Shown here piece after piece: positions 1 through 12,250 of a DNA stretch of 64,000 nucleotides. Origin of the DNA: Streptomyces sp. NBC_01275 (GTDB lineage Bacteria; Actinomycetota; Actinomycetes; Streptomycetales; Streptomycetaceae); the NCBI RefSeq assembly GCF_026340655.1, contig NZ_JAPEOZ010000001.1, positions 372,001-436,000 of the forward strand, in the 5' to 3' direction. Numbering within the stretch: position 1 is the first letter of the stretch; each line of letters opens with the position of its first letter. The position numbers were made by a program, and so were the translations under genes. Under the pieces are notes generated by a model. The model did no database searches. It saw nothing but the letters and a program-made list of their open reading frames with translations, and was not told the origin of the DNA.

Positions 1-620
1 TACGAACGGATGAAGGCGACGCTGTGGTGCCTCGGGTTGCAGCCGAGGAAGTAGAACGTGCCCCAGGGGTAGTCAGCTGTGTCGCTGAGCCGGAAGCCCA
101 GGACGTCGCAGTAGAAGTCGACCGCCTCCTGGACGTGCGGCGTCTTCATCACGACGTGCCCGAGCCCCTGCTCGCCGGTCACGAAGTCGACGCCGAGCGG
201 CGACACGAACTGGCTGGGGGCCAGGCGTCGGCCGCAGAACAGCTCGGTGCGGATGCCGAGCGGGCCGCCGAAGTGCACCATGCGCGTCACCTGGCGGTCC
301 AGGCACTCCTCCTCGGTGCCCGCCGTGACGTCGACGCCGGCCTCCTTGAGCCGCACCGTCATCGCGTCGATCGCCGCCCCGTCACGGACCTCCCAGCCGA
401 TGACCGTCACACCACCGGCCTCCGCCTCCGTCAGCCACATGCGGAACGGATGCTGGTCCATCCGCAGGCGGTAGTGCACGGGCCCCTCGCCCGCGGCAGA
501 GCCGCTGTCGGATGCGGCCTCTGGCTCGACCGCGAGGCCTATCACTGTGCGGGCGTACTCCGCCCATGCTGTCGGGTCGGGCGCGCCGATCCCTACGTAA
601 CCAAGGCTCTGGATCGTCAT
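1..620 (-). CDS. Extradiol ring-cleavage dioxygenase, BphC-like (3' end outside window)
   Basis: Type I (vicinal oxygen chelate) extradiol dioxygenase, the family that opens catechol-type rings with Fe(II). Only the first 206 residues are inside the window. The N-terminal VOC module spans about 1-130. The C-terminal, metal-binding module starts with GLGHVVM, where His155 is the expected first iron ligand. PRHHSVAF supplies the second ligand (His199 or its neighbour); the third ligand, a Glu, would lie beyond position 1. The stretch YPWGTFYFLGC is typical of 2,3-dihydroxybiphenyl dioxygenases. The start is the ATG at 620-618. The gene diverges from the gene at 703 and shares with it the dyad at 631-671. 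It probably supplies the ring-cleavage step of the neighbouring catabolic genes. Family assignment is firm; the substrate is not. Confidence 0.88.
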   Translation of the reverse strand, partial: MTIQSLGYVGIGAPDPTAWAEYARTVIGLAVEPEAASDSGSAAGEGPVHYRLRMDQHPFRMWLTEAEAGGVTVIGWEVRDGAAIDAMTVRLKEAGVDVTAGTEEECLDRQVTRMVHFGGPLGIRTELFCGRRLAPSQFVSPLGVDFVTGEQGLGHVVMKTPHVQEAVDFYCDVLGFRLSDTADYPWGTFYFLGCNPRHHSVAFIRS

Positions 621-630
621 GTCCAAGACC

Positions 631-671
631 GTATTTGTTAGACCCTTGACGGTCAAGGGCCATACGAATAC
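631..671. promoter_or_regulatory. 41-nt dyad operator in divergent promoter region
   Basis: Between the divergent dioxygenase and CMD-family genes lies a near-perfect palindrome centred on base 651. The core CCCTTGACGGTCAAGGG (643-659) has 8-bp arms around one central base. The outer parts GTATT (631-635) and AATAC (667-671) also pair. In all, 16 of 20 opposed positions are complementary. The same core occurs before the cupin gene (2794-2806). It is most likely the binding site of the MarR regulator at 2173-2715; that link is inferred. Confidence 0.8.
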
Positions 672-702
672 GTTGACGCCATCGAGCCGAGGAGGTCCGA
701 CG

Positions 703-1293
703 ATGTCGGGAGTAGTGCCCGAGAAGGCCCGCCTGCAGCCCGTCGACGAGAGCGAGCTGCACGAGAAGACACTGGCGTCGCTGGCGTCGTACCGCGACCA
801 GGACGGCCGGATCTACACGATCTGGGCGACCCTCGCGCACCACGAGGACGCCCTGCGCCGCTTCATCGTCTTCGGCAACCACGTACTGGGGAAGAACACC
901 CTGCCGCTGCCGTCCCGCGAGCTGATGATCCTCCGGATCGCGGCCCGGGCGCAGGCCGCCTACGAGTGGGACCAGCACGTCCGCATCGCCCGCCGCGCCG
1001 GGCTCACCGACGACACGATCCTGGCCGCCGCGACCGGCACCTGGGACGGACTCGACGACCTCGACCAGGTGCTGCTCACCGCCACCGACTCCCTCCTGGA
1101 CCGCCAGGGCGTGGACGACAAGCTGTGGGGCCGGCTGACCGACCACCTGAGCGTCGAGCAGGTCATCGATGTCCTCTACACCGTCGGCCAGTACCTCACC
1201 ATCGCCACCGTCATCAACACACTCGGCGTCCGGGTGGAGGGCGAGCTCGCCCTGCCCCTGCCTGTTCACGAGCAGAAGGAAGAAGCCGCATGA
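703..1293 (+). CDS. Carboxymuconolactone decarboxylase (AhpD-like) family protein
   Basis: A 196-residue CMD-family protein, all-helical. The family core is visible at LPSRELMILRIAARAQAAYE followed by WDQHVRIARRAGL. There is no CxxC pair, so it belongs to the PcaC-like, non-peroxidase side of the family. The frame is open back to an ATG at 619, but the ATG at 703 is preferred. It has a GAGGAGG ribosome site 7 nt upstream, and the earlier start would place coding sequence across the palindromic operator. Its stop overlaps the start of the FAH-family gene (ATGA), so the two are translated together. The role is probably a small-molecule step after ring cleavage. CMD-family members are often mis-assigned, so no reaction is claimed. 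Confidence 0.85.
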   Translation: MSGVVPEKARLQPVDESELHEKTLASLASYRDQDGRIYTIWATLAHHEDALRRFIVFGNHVLGKNTLPLPSRELMILRIAARAQAAYEWDQHVRIARRAGLTDDTILAAATGTWDGLDDLDQVLLTATDSLLDRQGVDDKLWGRLTDHLSVEQVIDVLYTVGQYLTIATVINTLGVRVEGELALPLPVHEQKEEAA

Positions 1294-2138
1294 AGCTCGC
1301 CAACCTCGCCGGGCGCCCCGTCGTCGTCCGCGACGACCGCGCCCTCGACATCGCGGACGCCAGCAAGGGAGCGATCGAGCCGCGCCTGGAGGTGCTGTCC
1401 GACCTCGCCCTCCACGACGAGCTGCGCGCGCTCGCCGAGCGGGCCGCCGACGCGCACTGGAAGCCGTTCGCGCCGGGTGACCTGGGCCGTGTCGCCAAGC
1501 CGTACAAGGCCATCGGCGTCGCCCTGAACTACCGCGCGCACGCCGAGGAGTCCAACCTTCCGGTGCCGGACGAACCCTCGGTGTTCGCCAAGTTCGCCTC
1601 GTCGGTGGTCGGCCCGTACGACGCGATCGTGGTGGAGGCGCGCTACGACAAGGTCGACTTCGAGGCGGAGCTCGTGGTCGTCATGGGCAAGGAGGGCAAG
1701 AACATCTCCGAGGCCGACGCCTGGTCCCACGTGGCCGGCGTCACCGCGGGTCAGGACATCAGCGACCGCAAGGAACAGTGGCGCAAGCCGATCAACCAGT
1801 TCACGCTGCCGAAGTCGTACGACACCTTCAGCCCGATCGGCCCGTACCTGGTGACGCTCGACGAGTTCGCCGACCCCGACGACATCGAGGTGGCCGGCTG
1901 GGTCGACGACCTGGAAGTCCAGCGGGGCCGCACCTCCGACCTGATCTTCAGCGTGCCCGAGCTGATCGCCTGGCTGTCGAAGCGGGTGACGTTCGAACCC
2001 GGCGACCTGATCTTCACCGGCACCCCGGCCGGCTGCGGCGTCCGCCGCACCCCGCGGCTGTACCTCACCGAGGGCAAGGTCCTGCGGACCGAGGTCACGG
2101 GTGTGGGCACTATGGTCAATCCGGTCGTCGGCGGCTGA
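1290..2138 (+). CDS. Fumarylacetoacetate hydrolase (FAH) family protein
   Basis: A 282-residue FAH-family enzyme; the family hydrolyses, decarboxylates or hydrates the oxo-dienoates made by meta-cleavage. Family marks are ALNYRAHAEE (catalytic His), YDKVDFEAELVVVMG (acidic metal ligands), GVTAGQDISDRKEQW and the C-terminal FTGTPAGCGV. The ATG at 1290 overlaps the upstream TGA by 4 nt, fixing the start. A short gap leads to the MarR gene, so CMD, FAH and MarR form one unit. With the extradiol dioxygenase next door, the likely substrate is a 2-hydroxy-2,4-dienoate or 4-oxalocrotonate-like product (inference). Confidence 0.9.
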   Translation: MKLANLAGRPVVVRDDRALDIADASKGAIEPRLEVLSDLALHDELRALAERAADAHWKPFAPGDLGRVAKPYKAIGVALNYRAHAEESNLPVPDEPSVFAKFASSVVGPYDAIVVEARYDKVDFEAELVVVMGKEGKNISEADAWSHVAGVTAGQDISDRKEQWRKPINQFTLPKSYDTFSPIGPYLVTLDEFADPDDIEVAGWVDDLEVQRGRTSDLIFSVPELIAWLSKRVTFEPGDLIFTGTPAGCGVRRTPRLYLTEGKVLRTEVTGVGTMVNPVVGG

Positions 2139-2172
2139 CACCGGCGAGGCCGGAGAAGGAAGGGTGGGAGAC

Positions 2173-2715
2173 GTGACGGACACCGCGCGCGAACCGGAGA
2201 CCTCAGGGACGAGCCGGACCCGGGAGTTCTCGGAGCTGCTGCGCCACCAGCATCGCGAGCTGGGCACGACCGATCCCCGCGACCTCGACGCGATCGAGAT
2301 GGTCACCGACCTCACCCGCCTCGAAGCCCGGCTGACCAAGGACTTCGAGAAGCACGTCCACCGGCCGCTGGGCCTGACCTGGGCGGGCTTCCGGATCCTG
2401 AACGCCCTGTGGGTCTACGGACCGCTCGGCCAGCAGGACATCGGCCGAGTCTCCGGATCCACCCGGGCCAGCATCTCCAGCGCCCTCGCGACCCTGGAGA
2501 GCCGCGGCCTCGTCACCCGCGAGCGGGTCGAGACCGACCGCCGTCAGCTGGTCGTCGAGCTCACCGCGGAGGGCCGCGAGACGCTGCGGCTGGCCATCGA
2601 GGCCCAGACGAAACGCGAGCGGGCCTGGACGGGCGTCCTGCGGGACGACCAGCTCAGTGAACTGGTGCATCTGCTGCGTACGCTGGTGAACCAGGAGACC
2701 CCGCCCGCGGAGTGA
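2173..2715 (+). CDS. MarR family transcriptional regulator
   Basis: A 180-residue winged-helix regulator. The MarR fold is clear: a dimerisation helix (LTRLEARLTKDFEKHV), then LTWAGFRILNALWVYGPLGQQDIGRV, the recognition helix STRASISSALATLESRGLVTRE, and the wing DRRQLVVELTAEG. The frame is open to an ATG at 2101 inside the FAH gene. GTG at 2173 fits better: an AAGGAAGG sequence lies about 9 nt before it, and the earlier start would overlap the FAH gene by 38 nt. Being last in the CMD-FAH operon and just upstream of the second dyad operator, it is the obvious candidate regulator of both units, probably released by an aromatic ligand or CoA ester (inference). Confidence 0.88.
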   Translation: MTDTAREPETSGTSRTREFSELLRHQHRELGTTDPRDLDAIEMVTDLTRLEARLTKDFEKHVHRPLGLTWAGFRILNALWVYGPLGQQDIGRVSGSTRASISSALATLESRGLVTRERVETDRRQLVVELTAEGRETLRLAIEAQTKRERAWTGVLRDDQLSELVHLLRTLVNQETPPAE

Positions 2716-2785
2716 GCGGGCCCGGGGAACCGGCCCACCACAGGAGTCGTGCTCGGAGCCGCCGCGGCACGACCGTCGAAAAACA

Positions 2786-2814
2786 GTTAGAACCTTTACC
2801 GTCAAGCATCTAAC
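2786..2814. promoter_or_regulatory. Second copy of the catabolic-locus dyad operator
   Basis: Centred on base 2800, 30 nt before the cupin start region. The inner dyad is CTTTACCGTCAAG (2794-2806, one mismatch to the 645-657 copy outside the central base). Outer arms GTTAG (2786-2790) and CTAAC (2810-2814) share the same centre. The left flank TTAGA-CCTT is also shared with the first copy. Probable operator for the eight-gene cupin-P450 operon. Confidence 0.75.
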
Positions 2815-2843
2815 AGTAGGTTGGTTTCTCAAGGGAGAGAATC

Positions 2844-3374
2844 ATGGTCCGTCGTGTCGTCACCGGTGTCAGCCCGAGCGGGAAGCCCGTGATCGTCAGT
2901 GACGGCGAGCCGCCGCGCACCAATCAGTCCGTGCACACCCCCGGCTTCGCCCGCTCCCTTGTGTGGAACACGGCGGCTCCCGCCGTCCCGTCGGCCGACC
3001 CGACGGCGTCCCTGAAGTCCTTCGTGCCCGGGCCGGGCGAGACGGTCGCGCTGACCGTCACCTTCGCGCCGGCCAGTGTCTACGCCGACCCCAGCTGGGA
3101 CCCCGCCGCCGCGGCGGCGGAGCAGCTGGAGTTCAGCCCCGGTCTCGCCGAGCTCTTCGAGCCCGACAACCCGGGCATGCACACCACGCCCACCGTCGAC
3201 TACGGCGTCGTCCTCACCGGCGAGCTGGTCCTCGACCTCGACGGCGGCGAGACCGCGGTCCTGGGGCCCGGCGACATCATCGTGCAGAACGCCACACGCC
3301 ACGCCTGGCGCAACAACGGCACCGAGCCCGCCACGGCGTTCTTCGTCCTGATCGGCGCGGGCGGCACCTCATGA
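2844..3374 (+). CDS. Cupin domain-containing protein
   Basis: A 176-residue protein with one C-terminal cupin barrel (about 95-175). The barrel shows MHTTPTVDYGVVLTGELVLDL, GETAVLGPGDIIVQNAT and RHAWRNNGTEPA. Possible metal-site residues are His near MHTT, Asp/Tyr of VDYGVV and His of RHAW, so the classic HxH is not complete. The first 90 residues are a less conserved arm. An AAGGGAGAG sequence precedes the ATG. It is the first gene of the P450 operon and its stop overlaps the P450 start (ATGA). Cupins of this type occur in catabolic loci as small hydrolases, isomerases or sensors; the exact role is unknown. Confidence 0.8.
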   Translation: MVRRVVTGVSPSGKPVIVSDGEPPRTNQSVHTPGFARSLVWNTAAPAVPSADPTASLKSFVPGPGETVALTVTFAPASVYADPSWDPAAAAAEQLEFSPGLAELFEPDNPGMHTTPTVDYGVVLTGELVLDLDGGETAVLGPGDIIVQNATRHAWRNNGTEPATAFFVLIGAGGTS

Positions 3375-4603
3375 GCCCCCTGACGACGGCGGCGCCCGGC
3401 GCTCCGGTCGTCGACCTCGACCTCGCCGACCTGCGCCGCGACCCCTACCCCGCCTACGCCGAGCTGCGCCGCACCGCCCCGCTCGCCTGGGTCCCCTCGG
3501 TCGGCCGGCACCTGCTCACCCGGTACGAGGACATCGTCCACGCGGAGAAGCTCCCCGAGGTGTTCAGCTCGCGCGAGGAGGGCTCGCTGCTGCTGCGTAC
3601 GGTCGGCCGGAACATGCTCCGCGAGGACGACCCAGACCACCGGCGCCTGCGGTCCGCGGCCGAGCCGCCGACCCGTCCGCGCCAGGTCCGCGACCTGTGG
3701 GCAGGCGCCTTCGAGCGCACCGCGCACGAGCTGCTCGACAAAATCGCCGACCGCGGCGAGGCCGACCTGATAGCCGACTTCGCCGAACCGCTCGTCGCCG
3801 CCAACCTGGCCCTGGTGCTGGGCCTGCGTGACGCGAGCGCCGAGGACATCGCCGGCTGGTCGCGGGCGATGATGGCCGGCAACAGCAACTACGCCGACGA
3901 TCCCGACATCTGGCTGCGCGCCGAACAGGCCACCGGCGCCATCGAGGACGCGGTGGCCCGGGCCGCCGAGGCCGCCCGGCGCGAGCCCGACGGCTCGGTG
4001 ATCTCCTCCATGGTCCACGCGGCCGAGCCGGTGGAGCTCACCGAGATCCAGAACAACGTCAAGGTCATCATCGGCGGAGGCGTCAACGAGCCGCGTGACG
4101 TCTTCGGCGTCGGCGCCTGGGCGCTGCTCAACCGCCCCGAGGTGCTGGACCGGGTGCTCGCCGAGCCCTCCTCCTGGAAGCGGGTCTTCGAGGAGACGGC
4201 CCGCTGGGTCTCGCCGATCGGCATGTACCCGCGCCAGCTCACGCAGGACTACGAGATCGCCGGGCTGACCCTCCCCGCCGGCAGCCGCGTGGCCCTCGTC
4301 ATCGCCTCGGGCAACCGGGACGAGTCGGTGTTCGAGCGGGCCGACGAGTTCGACCTGGACCGGCCGCACCGTCCGCATCTCGCCTTCGGCGGCGGACCGC
4401 ACTTCTGCATGGGCGCGTGGGTCGCGCGCCACGAGGTCAGCGCGATCGCCTGGCCCCTGATCTTCGACCGCCTCAAGGGACTCCGCCTCGCCGACGGCGC
4501 GACAGCATCCGACAGCGACTCCGCCGCGGGCCGCATGGACGGCTGGGTGTTCCGCGGGCCGACCTCGCTGAACGTCACCTGGCACGCAGCGCAAGCCGCC
4601 TGA
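3371..4603 (+). CDS. Cytochrome P450
   Basis: A 410-residue soluble bacterial P450 (class I), expected to hydroxylate or O-demethylate a small substrate. Heme motif FGGGPHFCMG lies at 339-348, with Cys346 as thiolate ligand. The K-helix ExxR is EETAR (Glu275, Arg278). The I-helix reads IIGGGVNEPRD (234-243): the usual acid-threonine pair is Glu-Pro, so the proton-relay threonine is missing. This is unusual but known in some aromatic-demethylating P450 groups. Ferredoxin and reductase genes follow directly, giving a complete electron chain. The ATG at 3371 overlaps the cupin stop. Substrate not determined. Confidence 0.93.
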   Translation: MSPLTTAAPGAPVVDLDLADLRRDPYPAYAELRRTAPLAWVPSVGRHLLTRYEDIVHAEKLPEVFSSREEGSLLLRTVGRNMLREDDPDHRRLRSAAEPPTRPRQVRDLWAGAFERTAHELLDKIADRGEADLIADFAEPLVAANLALVLGLRDASAEDIAGWSRAMMAGNSNYADDPDIWLRAEQATGAIEDAVARAAEAARREPDGSVISSMVHAAEPVELTEIQNNVKVIIGGGVNEPRDVFGVGAWALLNRPEVLDRVLAEPSSWKRVFEETARWVSPIGMYPRQLTQDYEIAGLTLPAGSRVALVIASGNRDESVFERADEFDLDRPHRPHLAFGGGPHFCMGAWVARHEVSAIAWPLIFDRLKGLRLADGATASDSDSAAGRMDGWVFRGPTSLNVTWHAAQAA

Positions 4604-4626
4604 GCCGTCCCCATCGGGAGGACTTC

Positions 4627-4950
4627 ATGCCCACCGTCATCTTCCAGTTGCCCGACGGGACCGAACGCAAGGTCACCGCCGCGTCGGGGACCGTGCTCAT
4701 GCAGGCGGCCGTCTCGAACGGCGTCCAGGGCATCGTCGCCGAGTGCGGGGGCAACGCCTCCTGCGCCACCTGCCACGTCTACGTGGACGCCGACCGGTCC
4801 GAGCTGGTGGGAGGCCCGAACGACGTCGAGGACGAGATGCTGGACTTCACCGCCGCCGAACGCCGGCCGACCAGCCGGCTCAGCTGTCAGGTCGAGCTCT
4901 CCGACGCCCTCGACGGCCTGGTGGTCCACGTGCCCGAGGAGCAGGTATGA
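4627..4950 (+). CDS. [2Fe-2S] ferredoxin, P450 partner
   Basis: A 107-residue plant/adrenodoxin-type ferredoxin. Cluster ligands are Cys40, Cys46, Cys49 and Cys87 (ECGGNASCATCHVYV, then RLSCQV), the adrenodoxin/putidaredoxin spacing. A GGGAGG ribosome site lies 5-6 nt before the ATG at 4627. It would carry electrons from the reductase encoded next to the P450 encoded just before. The stop overlaps the reductase start by 4 nt. Confidence 0.95.
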   Translation: MPTVIFQLPDGTERKVTAASGTVLMQAAVSNGVQGIVAECGGNASCATCHVYVDADRSELVGGPNDVEDEMLDFTAAERRPTSRLSCQVELSDALDGLVVHVPEEQV

Positions 4951-6200
4951 GCACAGGTACGACGCGCACCGCGGGTGTGGTCGTGGTCGGCGGCGGGCAG
5001 GCCGGGTTCAGCGTCGCCTCGACCCTGCGCGCCTGTGGCTACGACGGTCCGGTCACCGTGTTCGCCGCCGAGCCCCATCTGCCGTACCAGCGGCCGCCGT
5101 TGTCCAAGAAGGCCCACACCGAGCCGGACGAGCTGCGGGTCTCGCTGGTCCCGGAGTCCTTCTACGCCGAGCGGGACATCGAGCTGCGGCTCGGTGACGA
5201 CGTGGTCGCCCTCGACCCGGCGGCCCGCACGGTCCGCACCCGCGCCGGCAGACGCGTCCCCTACGCCCACCTGGTGCTGGCGACCGGTGCGCGCAACCGG
5301 CCCCTGCCGGTCCCCGGAGCCGACCTGGCCGGCGTGCACGCCCTGCGCTCGCTCGACGACGCGCTGGCCGTCGGCCGGGCTCTGGCGACGGCCCGTGACG
5401 TGGTCGTCGTCGGCGGCGGCTTCATCGGGCTCGAACTCGCCCAGGTGGCCCGGGCCCGCGGCGCGCGGGTGACCGTCGTCGAGCTGGCCGACCGGCTGCT
5501 GAGCCGGGCCGTCTCCCCGCAGCTCCAGGAACACCTGCGGCAGCGGCACGAGGAGTCCGGCGTCCGCGTCCTCACCGGGACGGCCGTGCAGCGGATCGAG
5601 GGCACGGACCGGGTCCGGCAGGTCGTGACGTCGGCCGGGATCCTCCCCGCCGACCTCGTCGTGTACGGCATCGGAGCCGTCCCCCGGGACGAGCTGGCGC
5701 GGGACGCCGGCCTGGCCGTGGACGACGGTGTGCTCGTCGACGAGCAGCTCCGCTCGGTCACCGACCCGCGGGTCTCCGCCGTCGGCGACTGCGCCCGCCA
5801 CCCCCACCCGCACGCGGTGGGCCCGGTCCGGCTGGAGTCCGTGCAGAACGCCACCGACCAGGGCGCGCTCGTCGGCCGCCGCCTCGCGGGACAGCCCGCC
5901 CGGTACGAGAACCTGCCGTGGTTCTGGAGCGACCAGGGTGCAGTCAAGCTGCAGATCGCCGGCCTGCGGGCGCCCTCGGACGAGGTCCGGCTGGTGCCGG
6001 GCGACACCCCTGGACGACTGGCCGCGTACGCCTTCCGCGACGGCCGGCTGGTGGCCGTCGAGACACTGGACTGGCCCGCCGAGCACCTGGCCGCCCGTCG
6101 GCTGCTCGAGCGGCGGACGCCGGTCCTGGCCGACGAGCTGACGGGCACGACGCTGGGCGGGCTCGCCCGCGCGAGACGGGCCGCGGAGGTGCGGGCATGA
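4947..6200 (+). CDS. FAD-dependent ferredoxin reductase
   Basis: A 417-residue putidaredoxin reductase-type flavoprotein. The FAD dinucleotide-binding motif is VVVVGGGQAG (11-20), and the NAD(P)H-binding motif is VVVVGGGFIG (152-161). The third FAD contact, SAVGDCA, is followed by the C-terminal ferredoxin reductase domain (PWFWSDQ). It completes the NADH-to-P450 chain. Both ends overlap neighbouring genes (ATGA at 4947 and 6197), so stoichiometric co-translation is likely. Confidence 0.94.
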   Translation: MSTGTTRTAGVVVVGGGQAGFSVASTLRACGYDGPVTVFAAEPHLPYQRPPLSKKAHTEPDELRVSLVPESFYAERDIELRLGDDVVALDPAARTVRTRAGRRVPYAHLVLATGARNRPLPVPGADLAGVHALRSLDDALAVGRALATARDVVVVGGGFIGLELAQVARARGARVTVVELADRLLSRAVSPQLQEHLRQRHEESGVRVLTGTAVQRIEGTDRVRQVVTSAGILPADLVVYGIGAVPRDELARDAGLAVDDGVLVDEQLRSVTDPRVSAVGDCARHPHPHAVGPVRLESVQNATDQGALVGRRLAGQPARYENLPWFWSDQGAVKLQIAGLRAPSDEVRLVPGDTPGRLAAYAFRDGRLVAVETLDWPAEHLAARRLLERRTPVLADELTGTTLGGLARARRAAEVRA

Positions 6201-7654
6201 CCACGAGCTCCTGGTTCGGCGCCCACCTCGTGACCAGTGCGGCCGAGGCCGGCTCCCGGCCCGCCCTCGTCTTCCAGGACCGCTCCTGGACCTACGCCGA
6301 GCTGGACCGGGCGGTCCGGCGCACGGTCGCCCGGCTCGACAAGCACGGGGTGCGCGGGGGCGACCGGGTGGTGATGCAGGGCGCGGCCCGGCCCGAGGCG
6401 CTGATCACGCTGTTCGCGGTGACGCGGATGGGCGCCGTCCTCGTCCCGCTGCACCCGCAGGTGACGGGCGGCGAGCTCGCGGTCGTGTGCGAGGAGACCG
6501 CCCCGACGGCCGTGGTCGCTGGCGAGCGCTTCCCGGCGGGCCCGGGCCTGCGGCTGACGTGGGAGGACCTGCATCCCGAGGACGAGGGTCCCGAGGCGCC
6601 GGTCTGCGATCCCCCGGCCGGCTCGGACGTCGCGGTGATCGCGTTCACGTCCGGGACCTCCGGCCGCCCCAAGGGCGTCGCACTCACCCACGACAACCTG
6701 TACCGGAGCATGGCGGGCGCGCTGGCGCGGCTGCCCTTCGGCGAGGACGACACCGCGCTGGTCTCCACCCCGCTGGCGCATGTCGCCGTCCTCGGCGGGC
6801 TGCCGCAGTGCACCTGGGCGCGGCGCGGGACGGTCGTCCTGGCGCCCCGCTTCGACCCGGACCTGTTCGTCGACCTGGTCCGCGACCACCGGGTCACCTG
6901 CGCCTTCGCCGTCCCCGCCATGTCCGCCCTGCTGGCCCGCCACCCCCGCTTCACCGGCGGCGAGCTGGACACCCTGCGGTGGATCCTGTCGGGTGGCTCA
7001 CCGGCCCAGACCGCCACCCGCGAGCAGTTCCGGGCCCGCGGGATCGGCGTGGTCAACTCCTACGGTCTGACCGAGACCAGCGCGGGCGTCACGTACTCCG
7101 CGCCCGAGGAGCCGGCGACCTCCACGGGCTCCCCCGTCCCGGAGGCGGAGTTGACGGTGGTGGACGCGACTGGGGCTCCCGCGCCGGTCGGCACACCCGG
7201 CGAGATCTGGGTGCGCGGGCCGTCGGTGGCGGACGCGTACTGGACCGCCACCGGATCGGTGCCCGTGGCCGATCGCGAGGGCTGGTTCCACTCCGGGGAC
7301 CGCGGGCTGTTCGACGCCGAGGGCCGCCTCACGGTCGTCGGCCGGCTCAAGGAGACCATCATCACCGGCGGGGAGAACGTCGACCCCGCCGAGGTCGAGA
7401 ACGCCCTCGCCGACTTCCCCGGCGTCGTCGAGGTCGCGGTGTCCGGGGCGCCTGACCCGGTCTGGGGCGAGGTCGTGACCGCCTTCCTCGTCACGGACTC
7501 CGGCACGCCGGCCCTGGAGGACGTCCGCGGTCATCTCGACGGCCGGCTCGCCCGGCACAAATGGCCCCGGCGCCTGTGCGTCGTGCCCGCACTGCCCCGC
7601 GGGGCCACCGGAAAGCTGCAGCGCGCGCGGCTGACGACGCTGCTGGACAACTGA
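6197..7654 (+). CDS. AMP-forming acyl/aryl-CoA ligase
   Basis: A 485-residue ANL-superfamily enzyme that activates a carboxylic acid as CoA thioester through an acyl-AMP. Motifs are AFTSGTSGRPKG (149-160, AMP-binding loop), NSYGLTETS, HSGDRGLFD, GRLKETIITGGENVDPAEVE and the C-terminal lysine motif PRGATGKLQR. It is slightly short for the family (most are 500-550). It starts inside the reductase stop codon. With the acyl-CoA and hydroxyacyl-CoA dehydrogenases downstream it suggests the acid is shortened or reshaped as its CoA ester. Confidence 0.92.
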   Translation: MTTSSWFGAHLVTSAAEAGSRPALVFQDRSWTYAELDRAVRRTVARLDKHGVRGGDRVVMQGAARPEALITLFAVTRMGAVLVPLHPQVTGGELAVVCEETAPTAVVAGERFPAGPGLRLTWEDLHPEDEGPEAPVCDPPAGSDVAVIAFTSGTSGRPKGVALTHDNLYRSMAGALARLPFGEDDTALVSTPLAHVAVLGGLPQCTWARRGTVVLAPRFDPDLFVDLVRDHRVTCAFAVPAMSALLARHPRFTGGELDTLRWILSGGSPAQTATREQFRARGIGVVNSYGLTETSAGVTYSAPEEPATSTGSPVPEAELTVVDATGAPAPVGTPGEIWVRGPSVADAYWTATGSVPVADREGWFHSGDRGLFDAEGRLTVVGRLKETIITGGENVDPAEVENALADFPGVVEVAVSGAPDPVWGEVVTAFLVTDSGTPALEDVRGHLDGRLARHKWPRRLCVVPALPRGATGKLQRARLTTLLDN

Positions 7655-7739
7655 CCCATCCTCCACAACTCCCAGAGACCGCACCGCAGTTGGTGCCGTC
7701 TCCCCCAGCCGTACCCGAAGCCGAACCCGAGGAGACGCC

Positions 7740-8852
7740 ATGAGTGCGACCATGCGAGCCGCGCGGATGCACGCCGTCGGCGAGCCGATGAGGATCGAGG
7801 AACTCCCCGTTCCCGAGCCCGGCCCCGGTGACGTCCGCGTGGCCGTCCACGCCGTCAACATCGTTCCGAACCTCGCCAACATCCTGAACATGTGGACGAC
7901 CTGGTTCCCGCACAGCCCCCTGCCGACCCTCCCGGCGATCTTCGGCCTGGACCCGGCAGGCGTGGTCGAGGCCGTCGGCGAAGGCGTCCAGGCCTTCAAG
8001 CCGGGCGACCGGGTGTACGTCAACCCGGGCCGCTCCTGCGGCTCCTGTCGCTCGTGCCGGAGCGGCGACTCGATCAACTGCGCCAGCTACGCCTTCGCCG
8101 GGTACTTCGGCTTCTCCCCGACCGCCCTGAACCTCCTCGACCGCTACCAGGGCGGCCTCGCCGAGTACATGGTGGCCCCGGCGTACAGCCTGGTGAAGCT
8201 GCCGGACTCGCTGTCCTTCGAGGCCGCCGCCCGCTTCGGCTACATCGGCACCATGTACTCGGCGCTGCGCAAGGCCGAGGCCGGTCCGGGCAAGACGATC
8301 CTCATCAACGGCATCAGCGGCACCCTGGGCATCGCCGCCGCGCTCCTCGCGCCGGCCATGGGCCTCACCCACGTGTACGGCACCGGCCGGGACAAGGGCC
8401 TCCTGGACCAGGTCGGCAAGCTGGCGGGCGGCCGTCTGAACCTGCACTCCCTCGACGACGGCCCGGTCGACGAGTGGATCCACGAGCAGACCGACGGCTA
8501 CGGCGCCGACATCTACATCGACGCCCTCGGCCCGGGCGCCCCGCACGAGACCTTCCGGGCCGGCATGCGGGCGATGGCACGCGGCGGCATCGCCGTCAAC
8601 ATCGGCGCCGTCGCCGGTGATCTGCCGATCGACATCCACCGGATGATGGACCAGCAGCTGCGGCTGATCGGCTCGGCCTGGTTCACCTCCGGCGAGGGGC
8701 AGGCCATGGCCGACATGGCGGGGGCCGGCCTGCTGGACCTGAGCCCGCTGGAGCACCAGGTGTTCCCGCTGGAGCAGGTCAACGACGCCATCAGCGGCAT
8801 CGCCGTGCGCAACGGCGGCTTCAGCAACTTCATCATCAGCCCGACGGCCTGA
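7740..8852 (+). CDS. Zinc-type alcohol dehydrogenase (MDR), catalytic zinc ligands absent
   Basis: A 370-residue medium-chain dehydrogenase/reductase. An N-terminal GroES-like domain is followed by a Rossmann domain (ILINGISGTLGIAAALLA). The structural zinc lobe is intact: Cys100, Cys103, Cys106, Cys114. The residues that normally bind catalytic zinc are not there. The usual Cys near residue 40 is in VNIVPNL, and the usual GHE is replaced by FGLDPAG (69-74). The fold is clear, but a zinc-alcohol chemistry should not be assumed; an enoyl/quinone-reductase-like reaction is possible. Gene order places it in the P450-CoA operon after an 85-nt gap. Confidence 0.85.
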   Translation: MSATMRAARMHAVGEPMRIEELPVPEPGPGDVRVAVHAVNIVPNLANILNMWTTWFPHSPLPTLPAIFGLDPAGVVEAVGEGVQAFKPGDRVYVNPGRSCGSCRSCRSGDSINCASYAFAGYFGFSPTALNLLDRYQGGLAEYMVAPAYSLVKLPDSLSFEAAARFGYIGTMYSALRKAEAGPGKTILINGISGTLGIAAALLAPAMGLTHVYGTGRDKGLLDQVGKLAGGRLNLHSLDDGPVDEWIHEQTDGYGADIYIDALGPGAPHETFRAGMRAMARGGIAVNIGAVAGDLPIDIHRMMDQQLRLIGSAWFTSGEGQAMADMAGAGLLDLSPLEHQVFPLEQVNDAISGIAVRNGGFSNFIISPTA

Positions 8853-8880
8853 CGCCGGCGAAGACTCAAGGAGACTGACG

Positions 8881-10071
8881 ATGCACGCACCGCACGCCGG
8901 GCGCCCGGCCGACCCCCTCGACCTCCTGGAACTCGACAGCCTGCTCACCCCGGACGAGCGCGCCGTACGCGACGCGGTGCGCACGTTCTGCGACCGGCGC
9001 GTCGACCCGTTCATCGCCGAGTGGTTCGAGCAGGGCGAGATCGAGGACATCCGCGGCCTCACCAAGGAACTCGGCGAACTCGGCCTGCTGGGCATGCACC
9101 TGGAGGGCTACGGCTGCGCGGGGATGAGCGCCGTCGACTACGGCCTCGCCTGCCTGGAACTGGAGGCGAGCGACTCCGGACTGCGTTCCCTGGTCTCGGT
9201 GCAGGGCTCGCTGGCCATGTACGCGATCCACGCCTTCGGTTCCGAGGAGCAGAAGGAGGGGTGGCTGCCGCGGATGGCGGCGGGCACGGCCATCGGCTGC
9301 TTCGGGCTCACCGAGCCCGACTCCGGCTCCGACCCGGGCAGCATGCGCACCGCCGCCCGCCGGGACGGCGCCGACTGGGTCCTCGACGGCCGCAAGATGT
9401 GGATCACGAACGGTTCGGTCGCCGACGTCGCCGTGGTCTGGGCCCGCACGGAGGACGGCATCCGCGGCTTCGTCGTCCCCACCGACACCCCCGGCTTCTC
9501 GGCTCCGGCGATCAAGCACAAGATGTCCCTGCGGGCGTCGGTGACCAGCGAGCTGGTCCTGGACTCCGTACGGCTCCCGGCATCGGCCGTCCTGCCGGAG
9601 GTGCGAGGGCTGCGCGGTCCGCTGTCCTGCCTGAGCGAGGCCCGGTACGGCATCGCCTGGGGTGCGATGGGCGCCGCACGCTCCGCCTTCCGGGCGGCGC
9701 TGAACTATGCCGGCGACCGCGTCCAGTTCGGCCGCCCGATCAGCGGATTCCAGCTGACCCAGGCCAAGTTGACCGACATGTCCCTGGAGCTGAACAAGGG
9801 CTTTCTGCTGGCCCTGCACCTCGGCCGGATCAAGGACGACCGCGGGCTGCGGCCCGAACAGGTCAGCTACGGCAAGCTCAACAACACCCGGACGGCACTG
9901 GAGATCTGCCGCACCGCGCGCACGGTGCTCGGCGCCAACGGCATCTCGCTGGAGTACCCGGTCATCCGGCACGCCAACAACCTGGAGTCGATCCTCACCT
10001 ACGAGGGCACGGTCGAGATGCACACCCTGATGATCGGCCAGGCGCTGACGGGCCAGGCGGCGTTCCGGTGA
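8881..10071 (+). CDS. Acyl-CoA dehydrogenase, glutaryl-CoA dehydrogenase-like
   Basis: A 396-residue flavoprotein of the acyl-CoA dehydrogenase family, oxidising an acyl-CoA to its enoyl-CoA. Signatures are CFGLTEPDSGSDPGSM and KMWITNG in the middle domain, YDF-free ARYGIAWGAMGAA, and the catalytic-base region ILTYEGTVEMHTLMIGQALTG, whose Glu of YEGT is the family base. SVQGSLAMYAIHAFGSEEQK and the C-terminus resemble glutaryl-CoA dehydrogenases, which also decarboxylate; whether this one does is not visible. An AAGGAGA site precedes the ATG. The stop overlaps the next start. Confidence 0.92.
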   Translation: MHAPHAGRPADPLDLLELDSLLTPDERAVRDAVRTFCDRRVDPFIAEWFEQGEIEDIRGLTKELGELGLLGMHLEGYGCAGMSAVDYGLACLELEASDSGLRSLVSVQGSLAMYAIHAFGSEEQKEGWLPRMAAGTAIGCFGLTEPDSGSDPGSMRTAARRDGADWVLDGRKMWITNGSVADVAVVWARTEDGIRGFVVPTDTPGFSAPAIKHKMSLRASVTSELVLDSVRLPASAVLPEVRGLRGPLSCLSEARYGIAWGAMGAARSAFRAALNYAGDRVQFGRPISGFQLTQAKLTDMSLELNKGFLLALHLGRIKDDRGLRPEQVSYGKLNNTRTALEICRTARTVLGANGISLEYPVIRHANNLESILTYEGTVEMHTLMIGQALTGQAAFR

Positions 10072-10970
10072 GCGCCGGGCCGGGCGCGGACATCCGCAGG
10101 GTCGGGGTCGTCGGCTGCGGGCTGATGGGCGCGGGCATCGCCGAGGTCTGCGCCCGGGCCGGCCTGGACGTCGTCGTCCACGAGGTGAACCCGGGTGCCG
10201 CCGAGGCCGGCCGGGCCCGGATCACCGCCTCGCTCGACCGCGGCGTACGGCGCGGCAAGCTCTCCGGGGCGGACCGTGACGCCGCGCTCGGCCGGGTGCG
10301 GGTCTCGACCGACCTGACGGACCTGGCCGACCGGGACCTGGTGGTGGAGGCGGCGACGGAGGACGAGAAGGTGAAGGCGGCGCTGTTCGCCGAGCTCGAC
10401 CGGATCGTCGTCCGGGAGGACGCGCTGCTGGCGTCGAACACCTCCTCCCTGCCCATCATGAAACTGGGCATGGCCACCGCCCGCCCGCACCAGGTGATCG
10501 GCGTGCACTTCTTCAACCCGGTGCCGGTGCTGGAGCTCGTGGAGATCGTGCCGTCGTTGCTGACGGCACCTCAGACACAGGTCCGGGCGGAGGAGTTCGT
10601 CACCCAGGTCCTGGCCAAGAAGGTGATCCGTGCCCAGGACCGGGCCGGCTTCGTGGTCAACGCCCTGCTCGTGCCCTACCTGCTCTCCGCGATCCGGATG
10701 CTGGAGTCCGGCCACGCCTGCGCGGAGGACATCGACACCGGCATGGTCCTCGGCTGCGCCCACCCGATGGGGCCGCTGAGCCTGGCCGACCTGATCGGCC
10801 TGGACACCCTCACCGCCATCGCCGAGGCGATGTACGCGGACTTCAAGGACCCGTTGCATGCCCCGCCGCCCCTGTTGCTGCGGATGGTGGAGGCCGGACT
10901 GCTGGGCCGGAAGTCCGGGCGCGGCTTCCACGACTACTTCGAGAACGACTCTTCCATGAAGGGCAACTGA
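10068..10970 (+). CDS. 3-hydroxyacyl-CoA (3-hydroxybutyryl-CoA) dehydrogenase
   Basis: A 300-residue NAD(P)-dependent dehydrogenase. The Rossmann motif GVVGCGLMGAGIAEV is near the N-terminus. The catalytic SNTSSLPI and HFFNPVPVLELVEIV segments and the C-terminal dimerisation helices (DTGMVLGCAHPMGPLSLADLIGLD) are all present, matching PaaH/FadB2-type enzymes. It starts with GTG overlapping the upstream TGA. It is the last gene of the operon and would oxidise the hydroxyacyl-CoA formed after dehydrogenation and hydration. No enoyl-CoA hydratase or thiolase gene is in the window. Confidence 0.93.
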   Translation: MSAGPGADIRRVGVVGCGLMGAGIAEVCARAGLDVVVHEVNPGAAEAGRARITASLDRGVRRGKLSGADRDAALGRVRVSTDLTDLADRDLVVEAATEDEKVKAALFAELDRIVVREDALLASNTSSLPIMKLGMATARPHQVIGVHFFNPVPVLELVEIVPSLLTAPQTQVRAEEFVTQVLAKKVIRAQDRAGFVVNALLVPYLLSAIRMLESGHACAEDIDTGMVLGCAHPMGPLSLADLIGLDTLTAIAEAMYADFKDPLHAPPPLLLRMVEAGLLGRKSGRGFHDYFENDSSMKGN

Positions 10971-11027
10971 CCTCATGGCACAGGAAGTTCGAGGTGTACA
11001 GGATGTTAGGAGAGCGCCGGCTGCCGT

Positions 11028-11047
11028 GCGAGGCGGTGGGGCCTCGC
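11028..11047 (+). terminator. Hairpin after the catabolic operon
   Basis: GCGAGGC (11028-11034) and GCCTCGC (11041-11047) form a 7-bp stem with a 6-nt loop, 58 nt after the last operon stop. There is no T-tract, as is common in Streptomyces. A second hairpin with 9-bp arms CACCAGCAG/CTGCTGGTG follows at 11197-11222. Either could end the transcript. Confidence 0.4.
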
Positions 11048-11794
11048 CCCCGTAGCCCGCCTTCCGCGCATCTCCTGGATGGCCCCTGACGCCCGGCAGG
11101 TCGGCCTCGGCCAGGAACCGCCAGCCCCGGGCCGTCGCGCATCAACCGCCCCGCCTGAAGTTGTTTCCGCAGAACATGATCGCGAAAGGCGTGCACCACC
11201 AGCAGCGAAGAATCTGCTGGTGAGTTGCCTCCCTTCGGCAGCCGACTACAGCCACTCAGCATCTGTTCAGCGGCTCGTCGGTCTGACTGCTAGCCGCGCC
11301 GCCCTCATCCGCGATGCGATCCAGCGCGTGACTTCACACCATCCGGACCAGCGGCAACACGCTCAACAGCCTGAAAGGGTACGGATTCGACCCGGATTCG
11401 ACCCGAGGGCCCCAGAATCCAAAACGAACCGTAGTTGACCTGCAGTGATGCTGATTCTTGCCGCTGTACCGAGCATCCGCCGGCAGAGGAGTCCCGCAAT
11501 TGAAACTAAGTGGACATTTTTGGGCGATTAACGCCACGCAGTGAGTAGTCGCACTCGCCGTCGCCCTCTCCGGCTCCCCCGAGCGCGAACCGAATGGCCG
11601 CACCACGCGGCACTCCACTCTGGCGACTAGGGGCTGACAGAACAGAGCTCTGACCAGCCTCTTTACAGAAGTCCTTCCGCCTGAAGGAAGCAGCCTTGCC
11701 GAGCCGACACAAGTCTCACGACCCTGATTCCAACCACGGCACGCGGAGCGACGACGCCCCGCCGACAGGGACGGGAACTGCCATGCCGCACATC

Positions 11795-11835
11795 ACCGCT
11801 TGTGCCAGGAACCAGTGGTTCTTGGCACAAGCGGT
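11795..11835. repeat. 41-nt near-perfect palindrome
   Basis: Two 20-nt arms (11795-11814 and 11816-11835) surround a single G at 11815. All opposed bases pair except one G/T (11808/11822). The core is GAACCAGTGGTTC; outward it reads CTTGTGCC and GGCACAAG. No T-tract follows. It could be a recombination or nicking site, a protein-binding site or a bidirectional terminator. Confidence 0.8.
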
Positions 11836-11954
11836 CAGTTCGTCAGAGCGGCTGGACGTATAGCCTCCGGCCCGAAGCGCCGACGGGCACGGTCTGCGGC
11901 GGCTCAGCCGCGCGGGCGCGGGCATCGCCGGGGTCCAGAGAGGAGCTGGCGATA

Positions 11955-12250
11955 GGCCCCGCCAGTTGGCAGCAGGGTCTGCGCGGATCATGAAGGCGCG
12001 TACCTCGCCGCAATCCGAGACCGGCTCGCGGGCTCAGCGCAGCCGTGGCGAGGGCGGGCGAGTGGTTCGTGGGCTCCAGCAGGGTGCTGGTACGCGTGGT
12101 GGAGCTGCGGTCGGCGTACCGCACTGTGAGGGAGAGTCGGCTCGCGATCTGGCTTTCGCCGCGCAGGCGCTCGCCGATCTGGTCGGCAAGTTCCAGAACT
12201 GCACGATGATGCTGTGCCGGGTCGAAGCAGTCCCGCTCCAGCACGACGTC
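11955..12250 (-). pseudogene. Remnant of Y-family DNA polymerase (DinB-type) little finger
   Basis: The minus strand encodes VLERDCFDPAQHHRAVLELA, then RLSLTVRYADRSSTTRTSTL and EPTNHSPALATAAL. This is the little-finger (C-terminal) domain of actinobacterial DinB/ImuB-like polymerases. After about 12004 the match moves to another frame (MIRADPAANW ending near 11955), so at least one frameshift is present. The palm, fingers and thumb domains are absent upstream. It is a dead fragment. Such polymerases are common on actinobacterial plasmids and integrated elements, which supports an island origin. Confidence 0.75.

What the first reader, a model, noticed from the sequence alone, without database searches (positions are those of the whole stretch)
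631..2814. One operator type in front of both catabolic transcription units
Palindromes centred at 651 and 2800 share CTTGAC-N-GTCAAG and the flank TTAGA-CCTT. The first extends to 41 nt with 16 of 20 pairs. They flank the MarR gene and predict a two-site regulon controlled by it, covering all 12 genes at 1-10,970.
Basis: partly seen in the sequence, partly recalled or inferred. Interest (0 to 1): 0.7.

Follow-up and report, generated by a model that had tools for sequence, protein, structure and literature searches.

The report
Shared MarR operator of aromatic-degradation genes
Two matching DNA switches in a Streptomyces genome very probably let one repressor protein control a cluster of genes for breaking down an unidentified aromatic compound; the arrangement is of a known type, but each switch looks like two repressor-binding boxes side by side.

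Summary
The 13-mer is too weak a motif (22 places with at most one mismatch in the genome, reversed control 27). The real unit is a 29-bp element, GTTAGA-NN-CTTGAC-N-GTCAAG-NN-TCTAAC, at 637-665 and 2786-2814, kept at both places in 18 of 18 intact loci compared, including a complete second copy of the cluster in the same genome. Variants lie beside 56-58% identical MarRs in 3 of 4 loci, beside MarRs of about 45% identity or less in 0 of 17. In 392 Streptomyces genomes a derived pattern is found in 13 of 14 with this MarR and 3 of 378 without. At site 1 the core holds the -35 hexamers of both divergent promoters (18 of 18 loci). Best explanation: MarR represses VOC-Aldedh, CMD-FAHD-marR (itself included) and cupin-to-HBDH, 13 genes rather than 12, and probably the second cluster. 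Conservation at site 2 suggests two 14-bp MarR boxes per operator. No binding was measured. The layout resembles CouR: a new member of a known kind.

The parts
637..665 (.). Operator 1 (29 bp): box A 637-650, centre base 651, box B 652-665; inside the longer 631-671 palindrome
   Evidence: kept in 18 of 18 intact loci with scores 20-23 of 24
646..651 (+). -35 hexamer TTGACG of the CMD-FAHD-marR promoter (inferred)
   Evidence: 17-bp spacer to TACGTT; TA...T at this spacing in 18 of 18 loci
669..674 (+). -10 hexamer TACGTT of the CMD-FAHD-marR promoter (inferred)
651..656 (-). -35 hexamer TTGACC of the VOC-Aldedh promoter (inferred)
   Evidence: 17-bp spacer to TACGGT; TA...T in 18 of 18 loci
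628..633 (-). -10 hexamer TACGGT of the VOC-Aldedh promoter (inferred)
3..620 (-). Extradiol dioxygenase (VOC, BphC/HsaC-like), cut by the window start; followed outside the window by an aldehyde dehydrogenase gene
703..1293 (+). Carboxymuconolactone decarboxylase-family protein (CMD)
   Evidence: PF02627
1290..2138 (+). Fumarylacetoacetate hydrolase-family protein (FAHD)
   Evidence: PF01557
2173..2715 (+). MarR-family regulator, 180 aa, the only regulator among the 13 genes of the cluster
   Evidence: PF01047; AlphaFold2 model mean pLDDT 89.4 with MarR fold; other genes' families
2786..2814 (.). Operator 2 (29 bp): box A 2786-2799, centre base 2800, box B 2801-2814
   Evidence: kept in 18 of 18 intact loci with scores 16-23 of 24
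2795..2822 (+). Possible promoter of the second unit: TTTACC (2795-2800), 16-bp spacer, TAGGTT (2817-2822); the -10 is not kept in all relatives
   Evidence: read; alignment
2844..3374 (+). Cupin-domain protein, first gene of the second unit
   Evidence: PF07883
3371..10970 (+). Rest of the second unit: P450 (3371-4603), ferredoxin (4627-4950), ferredoxin reductase (4947-6200), AMP-dependent ligase (6197-7654), zinc alcohol dehydrogenase family (7740-8852), acyl-CoA dehydrogenase (8881-10071), 3-hydroxyacyl-CoA dehydrogenase (10068-10970)
   Evidence: no further element in the window at 16 of 24 or better

Best explanation
The two sites are operators of the MarR-family repressor encoded at 2173-2715. 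With no inducer, MarR sits on 637-665, covers the facing -35 hexamers of both divergent promoters and shuts off VOC-Aldedh to the left and CMD-FAHD-marR to the right (hence negative autoregulation); on 2786-2814 it covers the promoter of the cupin-to-HBDH unit. A pathway intermediate, possibly a CoA thioester made by the cluster's own AMP-dependent ligase, releases it. Shown: the sites, their conservation and near-exclusivity to this cluster, the promoter-like hexamers inside site 1. Inferred: binding by this MarR, repression, the inducer, two dimers. Because the second cluster in the genome has the same sites and a MarR with the same recognition helix, cross-regulation is likely.
For: Both sites lie at the same places in 18 of 18 intact loci (window, its second copy, 10 named Streptomyces loci, 6 unnamed). 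A score of 16 of 24 or better hits nothing but the expected places in 362 kb of 24 loci; null 2 in 1 Mb of Markov sequence. In the own genome the 29-bp pattern at up to 3 mismatches gives 3 places, all in the two clusters, control 0. In 392 Streptomyces genomes 16 have the pattern, 13 of them among the 14 with this MarR at 56% identity or more, control 2; 22 of 26 places lie in the cluster. Loci with 56-58% identical MarR have variants at the same places in 3 of 4; 17 loci with MarRs of about 45% identity or less have none at 16 or better. The helix-98-110 stretch RAS(I/V)SSA is shared by the first two groups, not by the 45% proteins. VOC relatives occur in 13 of 392 genomes, each within the MarR set. 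Hexamer overlap 18 of 18 on both strands. Two-box reading: at site 2 the three best dyads are the centre and the two box centres; exact boxes 60 in 6.8 kb of intergenic DNA, 82 in 333 kb elsewhere, 22 loci.
Against: No binding or expression data. MarR, sites and enzymes are nearly always neighbours, so co-occurrence cannot separate 'site of this MarR' from 'site of this cluster'; the genomes are related, so the Fisher value 1e-20 overstates. The pattern was built after seeing some of the same loci. One of four 56-58% loci (L069) has no site at 16 of 24 or better. Site 2 lacks a conserved -10. A strict sigma-70 scan found no promoter in 560-3000. Three genomes without the MarR have a pattern match. 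Two-box reading: at site 1 the box dyads are not significant and a dyad at 11.5 is stronger than either.
Confidence: 0.82

Rival explanations
1. One MarR dimer binds the whole 29-bp palindrome about its centre; the box symmetry is incidental.
For: Site 1 is most symmetric about the centre: mean 11.2 of 14 pairs over 18 loci, boxes only 3.2 of 7; its box dyads (0.46 and 0.46, p about 0.1) are weaker than an off-centre dyad at 11.5 (0.68). Of 11 second-group sites 7 match better as inverted than as direct repeats.
Against: In the more diverged site 2 the box dyads (0.59, 0.53) are about as strong as the central one (0.60), and in the second group likewise (0.47, 0.51, 0.53). The inner arms alone put half-sites about 5 bp apart, against about one turn in known MarR boxes (MexR GTTGA-N5-TCAAC; CouR 5-bp spacer). 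The site after MarR in two of the second-group loci reads better as a direct repeat (9 of 14 against 5 and 7 inverted; two further sites tie). The second-group sites were picked by their match to the consensus, which favours both readings.
Confidence: 0.35
2. The sites belong to another regulator encoded elsewhere in the genome.
For: Co-occurrence is with the whole cluster, not with MarR alone; three pattern matches lie in genomes without this MarR.
Against: MarR is the only regulator among the 13 genes. Sites are absent beside more distant MarRs. In S. griseoruber most enzyme genes are deleted but MarR is intact and site 2 is kept.
Confidence: 0.08
3. Site 1 looks palindromic only because two promoters face each other and share -35 hexamers; no regulator is involved.
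For: TTGACG/TTGACC and both -10-like hexamers fall in or at the edge of the palindrome, 18 of 18 loci.
Against: The outer arms GTTAGA/TCTAAC are no part of a -35 or -10, and the same 29-bp element recurs at site 2, which has no divergent gene.
Confidence: 0.05
4. MarR activates rather than represses from these sites.
For: Some MarR proteins are activators (passage in PMC4737184).
Against: The operator covers the -35 hexamers instead of lying upstream of them.
Confidence: 0.06

Closest known systems
CouR of Rhodococcus jostii RHA1 (passages of PMC4737184; an entry named CouR, 6c28, is the best sequence match in the PDB, E 2.5e-9)
   Same: MarR-family repressor of an aromatic catabolic gene set; an inverted repeat overlapping the -35 boxes; one operator between divergent promoters covering both -35 boxes; inducer is a CoA thioester, and here too a CoA-ligase-type enzyme is in the regulon
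   Different: CouR box cATTGA-N5-TCAATg is a single box; here 29 bp with two apparent boxes GTNA-N6-TNAC; other enzymes; ligand unknown here
MexR operator of Pseudomonas aeruginosa (passages of PMC9892617)
   Same: GT-starting half-sites in a 15-bp box (GTTGACCTTATCAAC) for one dimer; two such regions, PI and PII, control the operon
   Different: Efflux, not catabolism; PI and PII are described as two regions with one dimer each, not as one 29-bp element
Rv2887 on 30-bp DNA (passages of PMC5526998; MarR section passage of the review PMC6018408)
   Same: Precedent for two MarR dimers on about 30 bp
   Different: Little palindromy; different regulon
[not shown]
   Same: MarR repressor of an aromatic operon in the same genus
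   Different: 22-24% identity over the fold; other pathway; operator not compared

Membership tests
MarR family of transcriptional regulators | MarR winged-helix domain in sequence | tested here: met
   PF01047 47.2 bits, cut-off 24.6
MarR family of transcriptional regulators | Fold of solved MarR proteins | tested here: met
   [not shown]
MarR family of transcriptional regulators | Homodimer binding inverted-repeat DNA near its own promoter | tested here: inconclusive
   Conserved inverted repeats at the promoter of its operon; dimer and binding not testable here
CouR-like regulators of aromatic catabolism | Operator overlapping -35 boxes, shared by divergent promoters | tested here: met
   By sequence, 18 of 18 loci, against the description in PMC4737184; start sites not mapped
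CouR-like regulators of aromatic catabolism | Box ATTGA-N5-TCAAT | tested here: not met
   The element here is GTTAGA-NN-CTTGAC-N-GTCAAG-NN-TCTAAC
CouR-like regulators of aromatic catabolism | Release by an aromatic CoA thioester | not testable with these tools
   An AMP-dependent ligase is in the unit (PF00501); no ligand data
HpaR, BagL/FevM, BilQ and other named MarR equivalogs | NCBIfam score above the curated cut-off | tested here: not met
   12 families listed, none at its cut-off: best 45.8 bits against 230 (BagL/FevM); HpaR 40.3 against 121.2

The most novel reading that the evidence does not exclude
Each 29-bp operator is two MarR dimer boxes set 15 bp apart, on roughly opposite faces of the helix, so that their junction forms a palindrome which at site 1 doubles as the face-to-face -35 hexamers of two promoters; loading of two dimers gives a steep, simultaneous switch of both directions, and some relatives have turned the boxes from inverted to direct while keeping the 15-bp step.
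Probability: 0.42. Interest if true: 0.45.

Novelty: new member of a known kind. Interest (0 to 1): 0.3.

Why it matters
It gives an uncharacterised regulator a testable operator and an exact gene set, names a repressor-promoter pair that could become a sensor for an unknown aromatic compound, and offers natural variants (14 distinct sequences of site 1 and 18 of site 2 in 18 loci) for testing whether MarR dimers load in pairs. Nothing in it overturns what is known of MarR regulation.

Tried and rejected
Whole-genome counting of the 13-mer as support: rejected, since with one mismatch it is no commoner than the control. GTTAGA-N17-TCTAAC with 2 mismatches: 21 places against 56 in the control, too loose by itself; with the exact hit it pointed to the second cluster. 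Terminator or RNA element: no terminator-like site in 560-3000, no Rfam match at gathering score in 1-12000, site 2 folds no better than shuffles (z 0.43); site 1 folds well as RNA (z -3.78 and -3.10), which its palindrome explains, and it lies upstream of the start sites implied by the hexamers. Sites near distant MarRs: a first look at 10 stretches included L095, which was fetched for its site; repeated on every low-identity locus held, 20 stretches covering 17 distinct MarR loci of 25 low-identity matches: 0 at 16 of 24 or better, best 14, while letter shuffles reached 14-17. Class-wide search (394 genomes): one hit outside Streptomyces at E 1e-30 or better, 43% identity, without the site. 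Literature: searches (20 of 28 papers listed; 15 of 86; 1 of 1) listed no paper that I recognised as describing this cluster; five papers were read in passages only, none in full. The TANNNT form of the -10 used is recalled, not taken from a call.

Choices that favour the reading: the consensus was drawn from the window and its relatives; sites were taken as the best-scoring 29-mer of each intergenic region; for the second group two candidates per VOC-CMD region and one per region after MarR were taken, 11 of 12 kept, the region after MarR in L069 being dropped for lack of a candidate. L020 was left out of the 18 because its cluster is mostly deleted.

Full report
What is there. The window is part of a 10.4-Mb Streptomyces genome (G000:C1:372001-436000; genus inferred from the named relatives). 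From its start it carries an extradiol dioxygenase gene (VOC, minus strand, cut by the window start), then CMD, FAHD and marR on the plus strand, then cupin, P450, ferredoxin, ferredoxin reductase, AMP-dependent ligase, alcohol dehydrogenase-family, acyl-CoA dehydrogenase and 3-hydroxyacyl-CoA dehydrogenase genes. Outside the window VOC is followed by an aldehyde dehydrogenase gene kept in the relatives. This looks like ring hydroxylation, meta-cleavage and side-chain oxidation of an aromatic compound; the substrate is unknown (inference from the families).

The observation. Both palindromes exist at the stated places. Site 1 has the exact core and 16 of 20 pairs over 41 nt; site 2 has CTTTAC in place of CTTGAC but perfect outer arms. 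A palindrome as good as site 1 is rare by chance (0.17 per 64 kb at 16 of 20; 2 of 60 Markov sequences with the inner arm perfect too). The window itself has 5 palindromes at 16 of 20 or better, 3 of them with perfect inner arms, so the palindrome alone is not the argument.

The right motif. The 13-mer with one mismatch is at control level in the genome: 22 places against 27. Comparison of relatives shows a 29-bp element, GTTAGA-NN-CTTGAC-N-GTCAAG-NN-TCTAAC, at 637-665 and 2786-2814. In 18 intact loci (window, L016, 10 of the 11 named Streptomyces loci, 6 unnamed loci) site 1 scores 20-23 and site 2 16-23 of 24 specified positions. The eleventh named locus, S. griseoruber (L020), with most of the cluster deleted, keeps an intact MarR and site 2 but has lost site 1. 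At 16 of 24 or better the consensus hits only the expected places in 362 kb of 24 loci; the null is 2 in 1 Mb of Markov sequence, somewhat more in letter shuffles (single shuffles of 3-14 kb reach 14-17). In the own genome a stricter 29-bp pattern gives 3 places at up to 3 mismatches, all in the two clusters, control 0; site 1 of the window is missed by that pattern (4 mismatches by my count).

A second copy. The whole set is present again at G000:C1 about 30-43 kb: 12 proteins at 78-94% identity and the aldehyde dehydrogenase at 84%, DNA 86%, both operators in place. The two MarRs are 88% identical with the same recognition-helix stretch. The copy is no more similar to the window than other species' clusters are, so it is not a recent duplication. 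Cross-regulation is likely, and the regulon would be two clusters with four operators.

Link to MarR. Of 392 Streptomyces genomes, 31 have a MarR at E 1e-20 or better, 40 matches in all: 12 at 83-99% identity in 11 genomes, 4 at 56-57% in 4 genomes (one of them among the 11), 24 at 45% or lower. The pattern GTNAGANNCTTGACNGTCANNNNTCTNAC (up to 2 mismatches) is found in 16 of 392 genomes, control 2. It is in 13 of the 14 genomes with MarR at 56% or more (missed: G280) and in 3 of the other 378 (G157, G284, G349); 22 of 26 places lie in the cluster. The Fisher value (1e-20) ignores relatedness, and the pattern was made after seeing some of these loci. The 56-58% group keeps VOC, CMD, FAHD and MarR in the same layout with a reordered remainder, and has element variants between VOC and CMD and after MarR; L069 has none at 16 of 24 or better, and L067, L068 and L070 have three, two and two. 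At 17 loci of MarRs at about 45% identity or less there is none. VOC relatives (E 1e-60) occur in 13 of 392 genomes, each within the MarR set, so no genome in the sample has this VOC without the MarR and the test cannot separate the two.

Promoters. At site 1, TTGACG (646-651, plus) and TTGACC (651-656, minus) share base 651; each is followed after 17 bp by TA...T (669-674; 628-633 on minus) in 18 of 18 loci on both strands. The strict scan, which asks for 9 of 12 consensus letters, found none in 560-3000. So one bound repressor would cover both -35 hexamers. At site 2 the window has TTTACC-16-TAGGTT, but the -10 is not kept in all lineages, so this promoter is less certain. No other element lies in the window, so the ADH, ACAD and HBDH genes are assigned to the cupin unit by continuity only.

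Two boxes. Each 14-bp half (GTTAGANNCTTGAC) is itself near-symmetric, GTNA-N6-TNAC. In site 2 over 18 loci the three strongest dyads of the 29-mer are its centre (0.60) and the two box centres (0.59, 0.53), the next being 0.42; column-permutation p 0.005, 0.0025, 0.0125. In the 11 second-group sites the same three lead (0.53, 0.47, 0.51; next 0.39), but these were chosen by consensus match. In site 1 the centre dominates (0.94); the box centres (0.46 and 0.46, p about 0.1) are not significant and lie below an off-centre dyad at 11.5 (0.68), which speaks against the reading there, unless the face-to-face hexamers mask it. Exact boxes number 60 in 6.8 kb of intergenic DNA and 82 in 333 kb elsewhere, in 22 loci. 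Of the 11 second-group sites 2 match better as direct repeats (9 against 5 and 9 against 7 of 14, both after MarR), 2 tie and 7 match better as inverted repeats. A half-site distance of about one turn within a box fits published MarR boxes (MexR, CouR; passages), and two dimers on 30 bp have been seen for Rv2887 (passages). I give this reading about 0.42.

Known context. MarR membership is met by sequence and fold. CouR of R. jostii is the nearest described mechanism that I found: an inverted repeat over both -35 boxes of divergent promoters, released by p-coumaroyl-CoA (passages); the box sequence differs. By NCBIfam the protein reaches the cut-off of none of the 12 families listed. Novelty: new member of a known kind, with a possible two-box twist.

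Noticed in passing
L016:5215-18300 (G000:C1 about 30-43 kb): Complete second copy of the catabolic cluster near the end of the largest contig, 78-94% protein identity, with both operators and its own MarR.
   Followed up: yes
L020:4422-6547 (S. griseoruber): Cluster reduced by deletions: fragments of VOC, FAHD and FdR and most of HBDH remain, while MarR is intact and operator 2 is kept.
   Followed up: partly
L095:4122-4150 (G062:C55:16122): A further element (19 of 24, shuffles up to 15) about 30 bp before a FAD-binding (PF01494) gene on another contig of a genome with the cluster, if that gene starts at the GTG near 4090 (my reading; the mechanical ORF is longer and covers the site): possible extra regulon member, a single case.
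   Followed up: partly
L085:1501-1529 (G284:C1:32829): Palindromic match GTCAAACTCTTGACCGTCAAGATTATGAC beside a frame 28% identical to the cluster's alcohol dehydrogenase, in a genome with no MarR match at E 1e-20; perhaps a related regulator's site, perhaps chance.
   Followed up: no
window 1-64000: Five odd-centred palindromes with 16 of 20 pairs or more against 0.17 expected, at least one perfect over 41 nt; only site 1 was looked at.
   Followed up: no
window 6197-7654 and 8881-10970: AMP-dependent ligase, acyl-CoA dehydrogenase and 3-hydroxyacyl-CoA dehydrogenase genes in one unit with a P450 system suggest an aromatic substrate with an acyl side chain; substrate unidentified.
   Followed up: no
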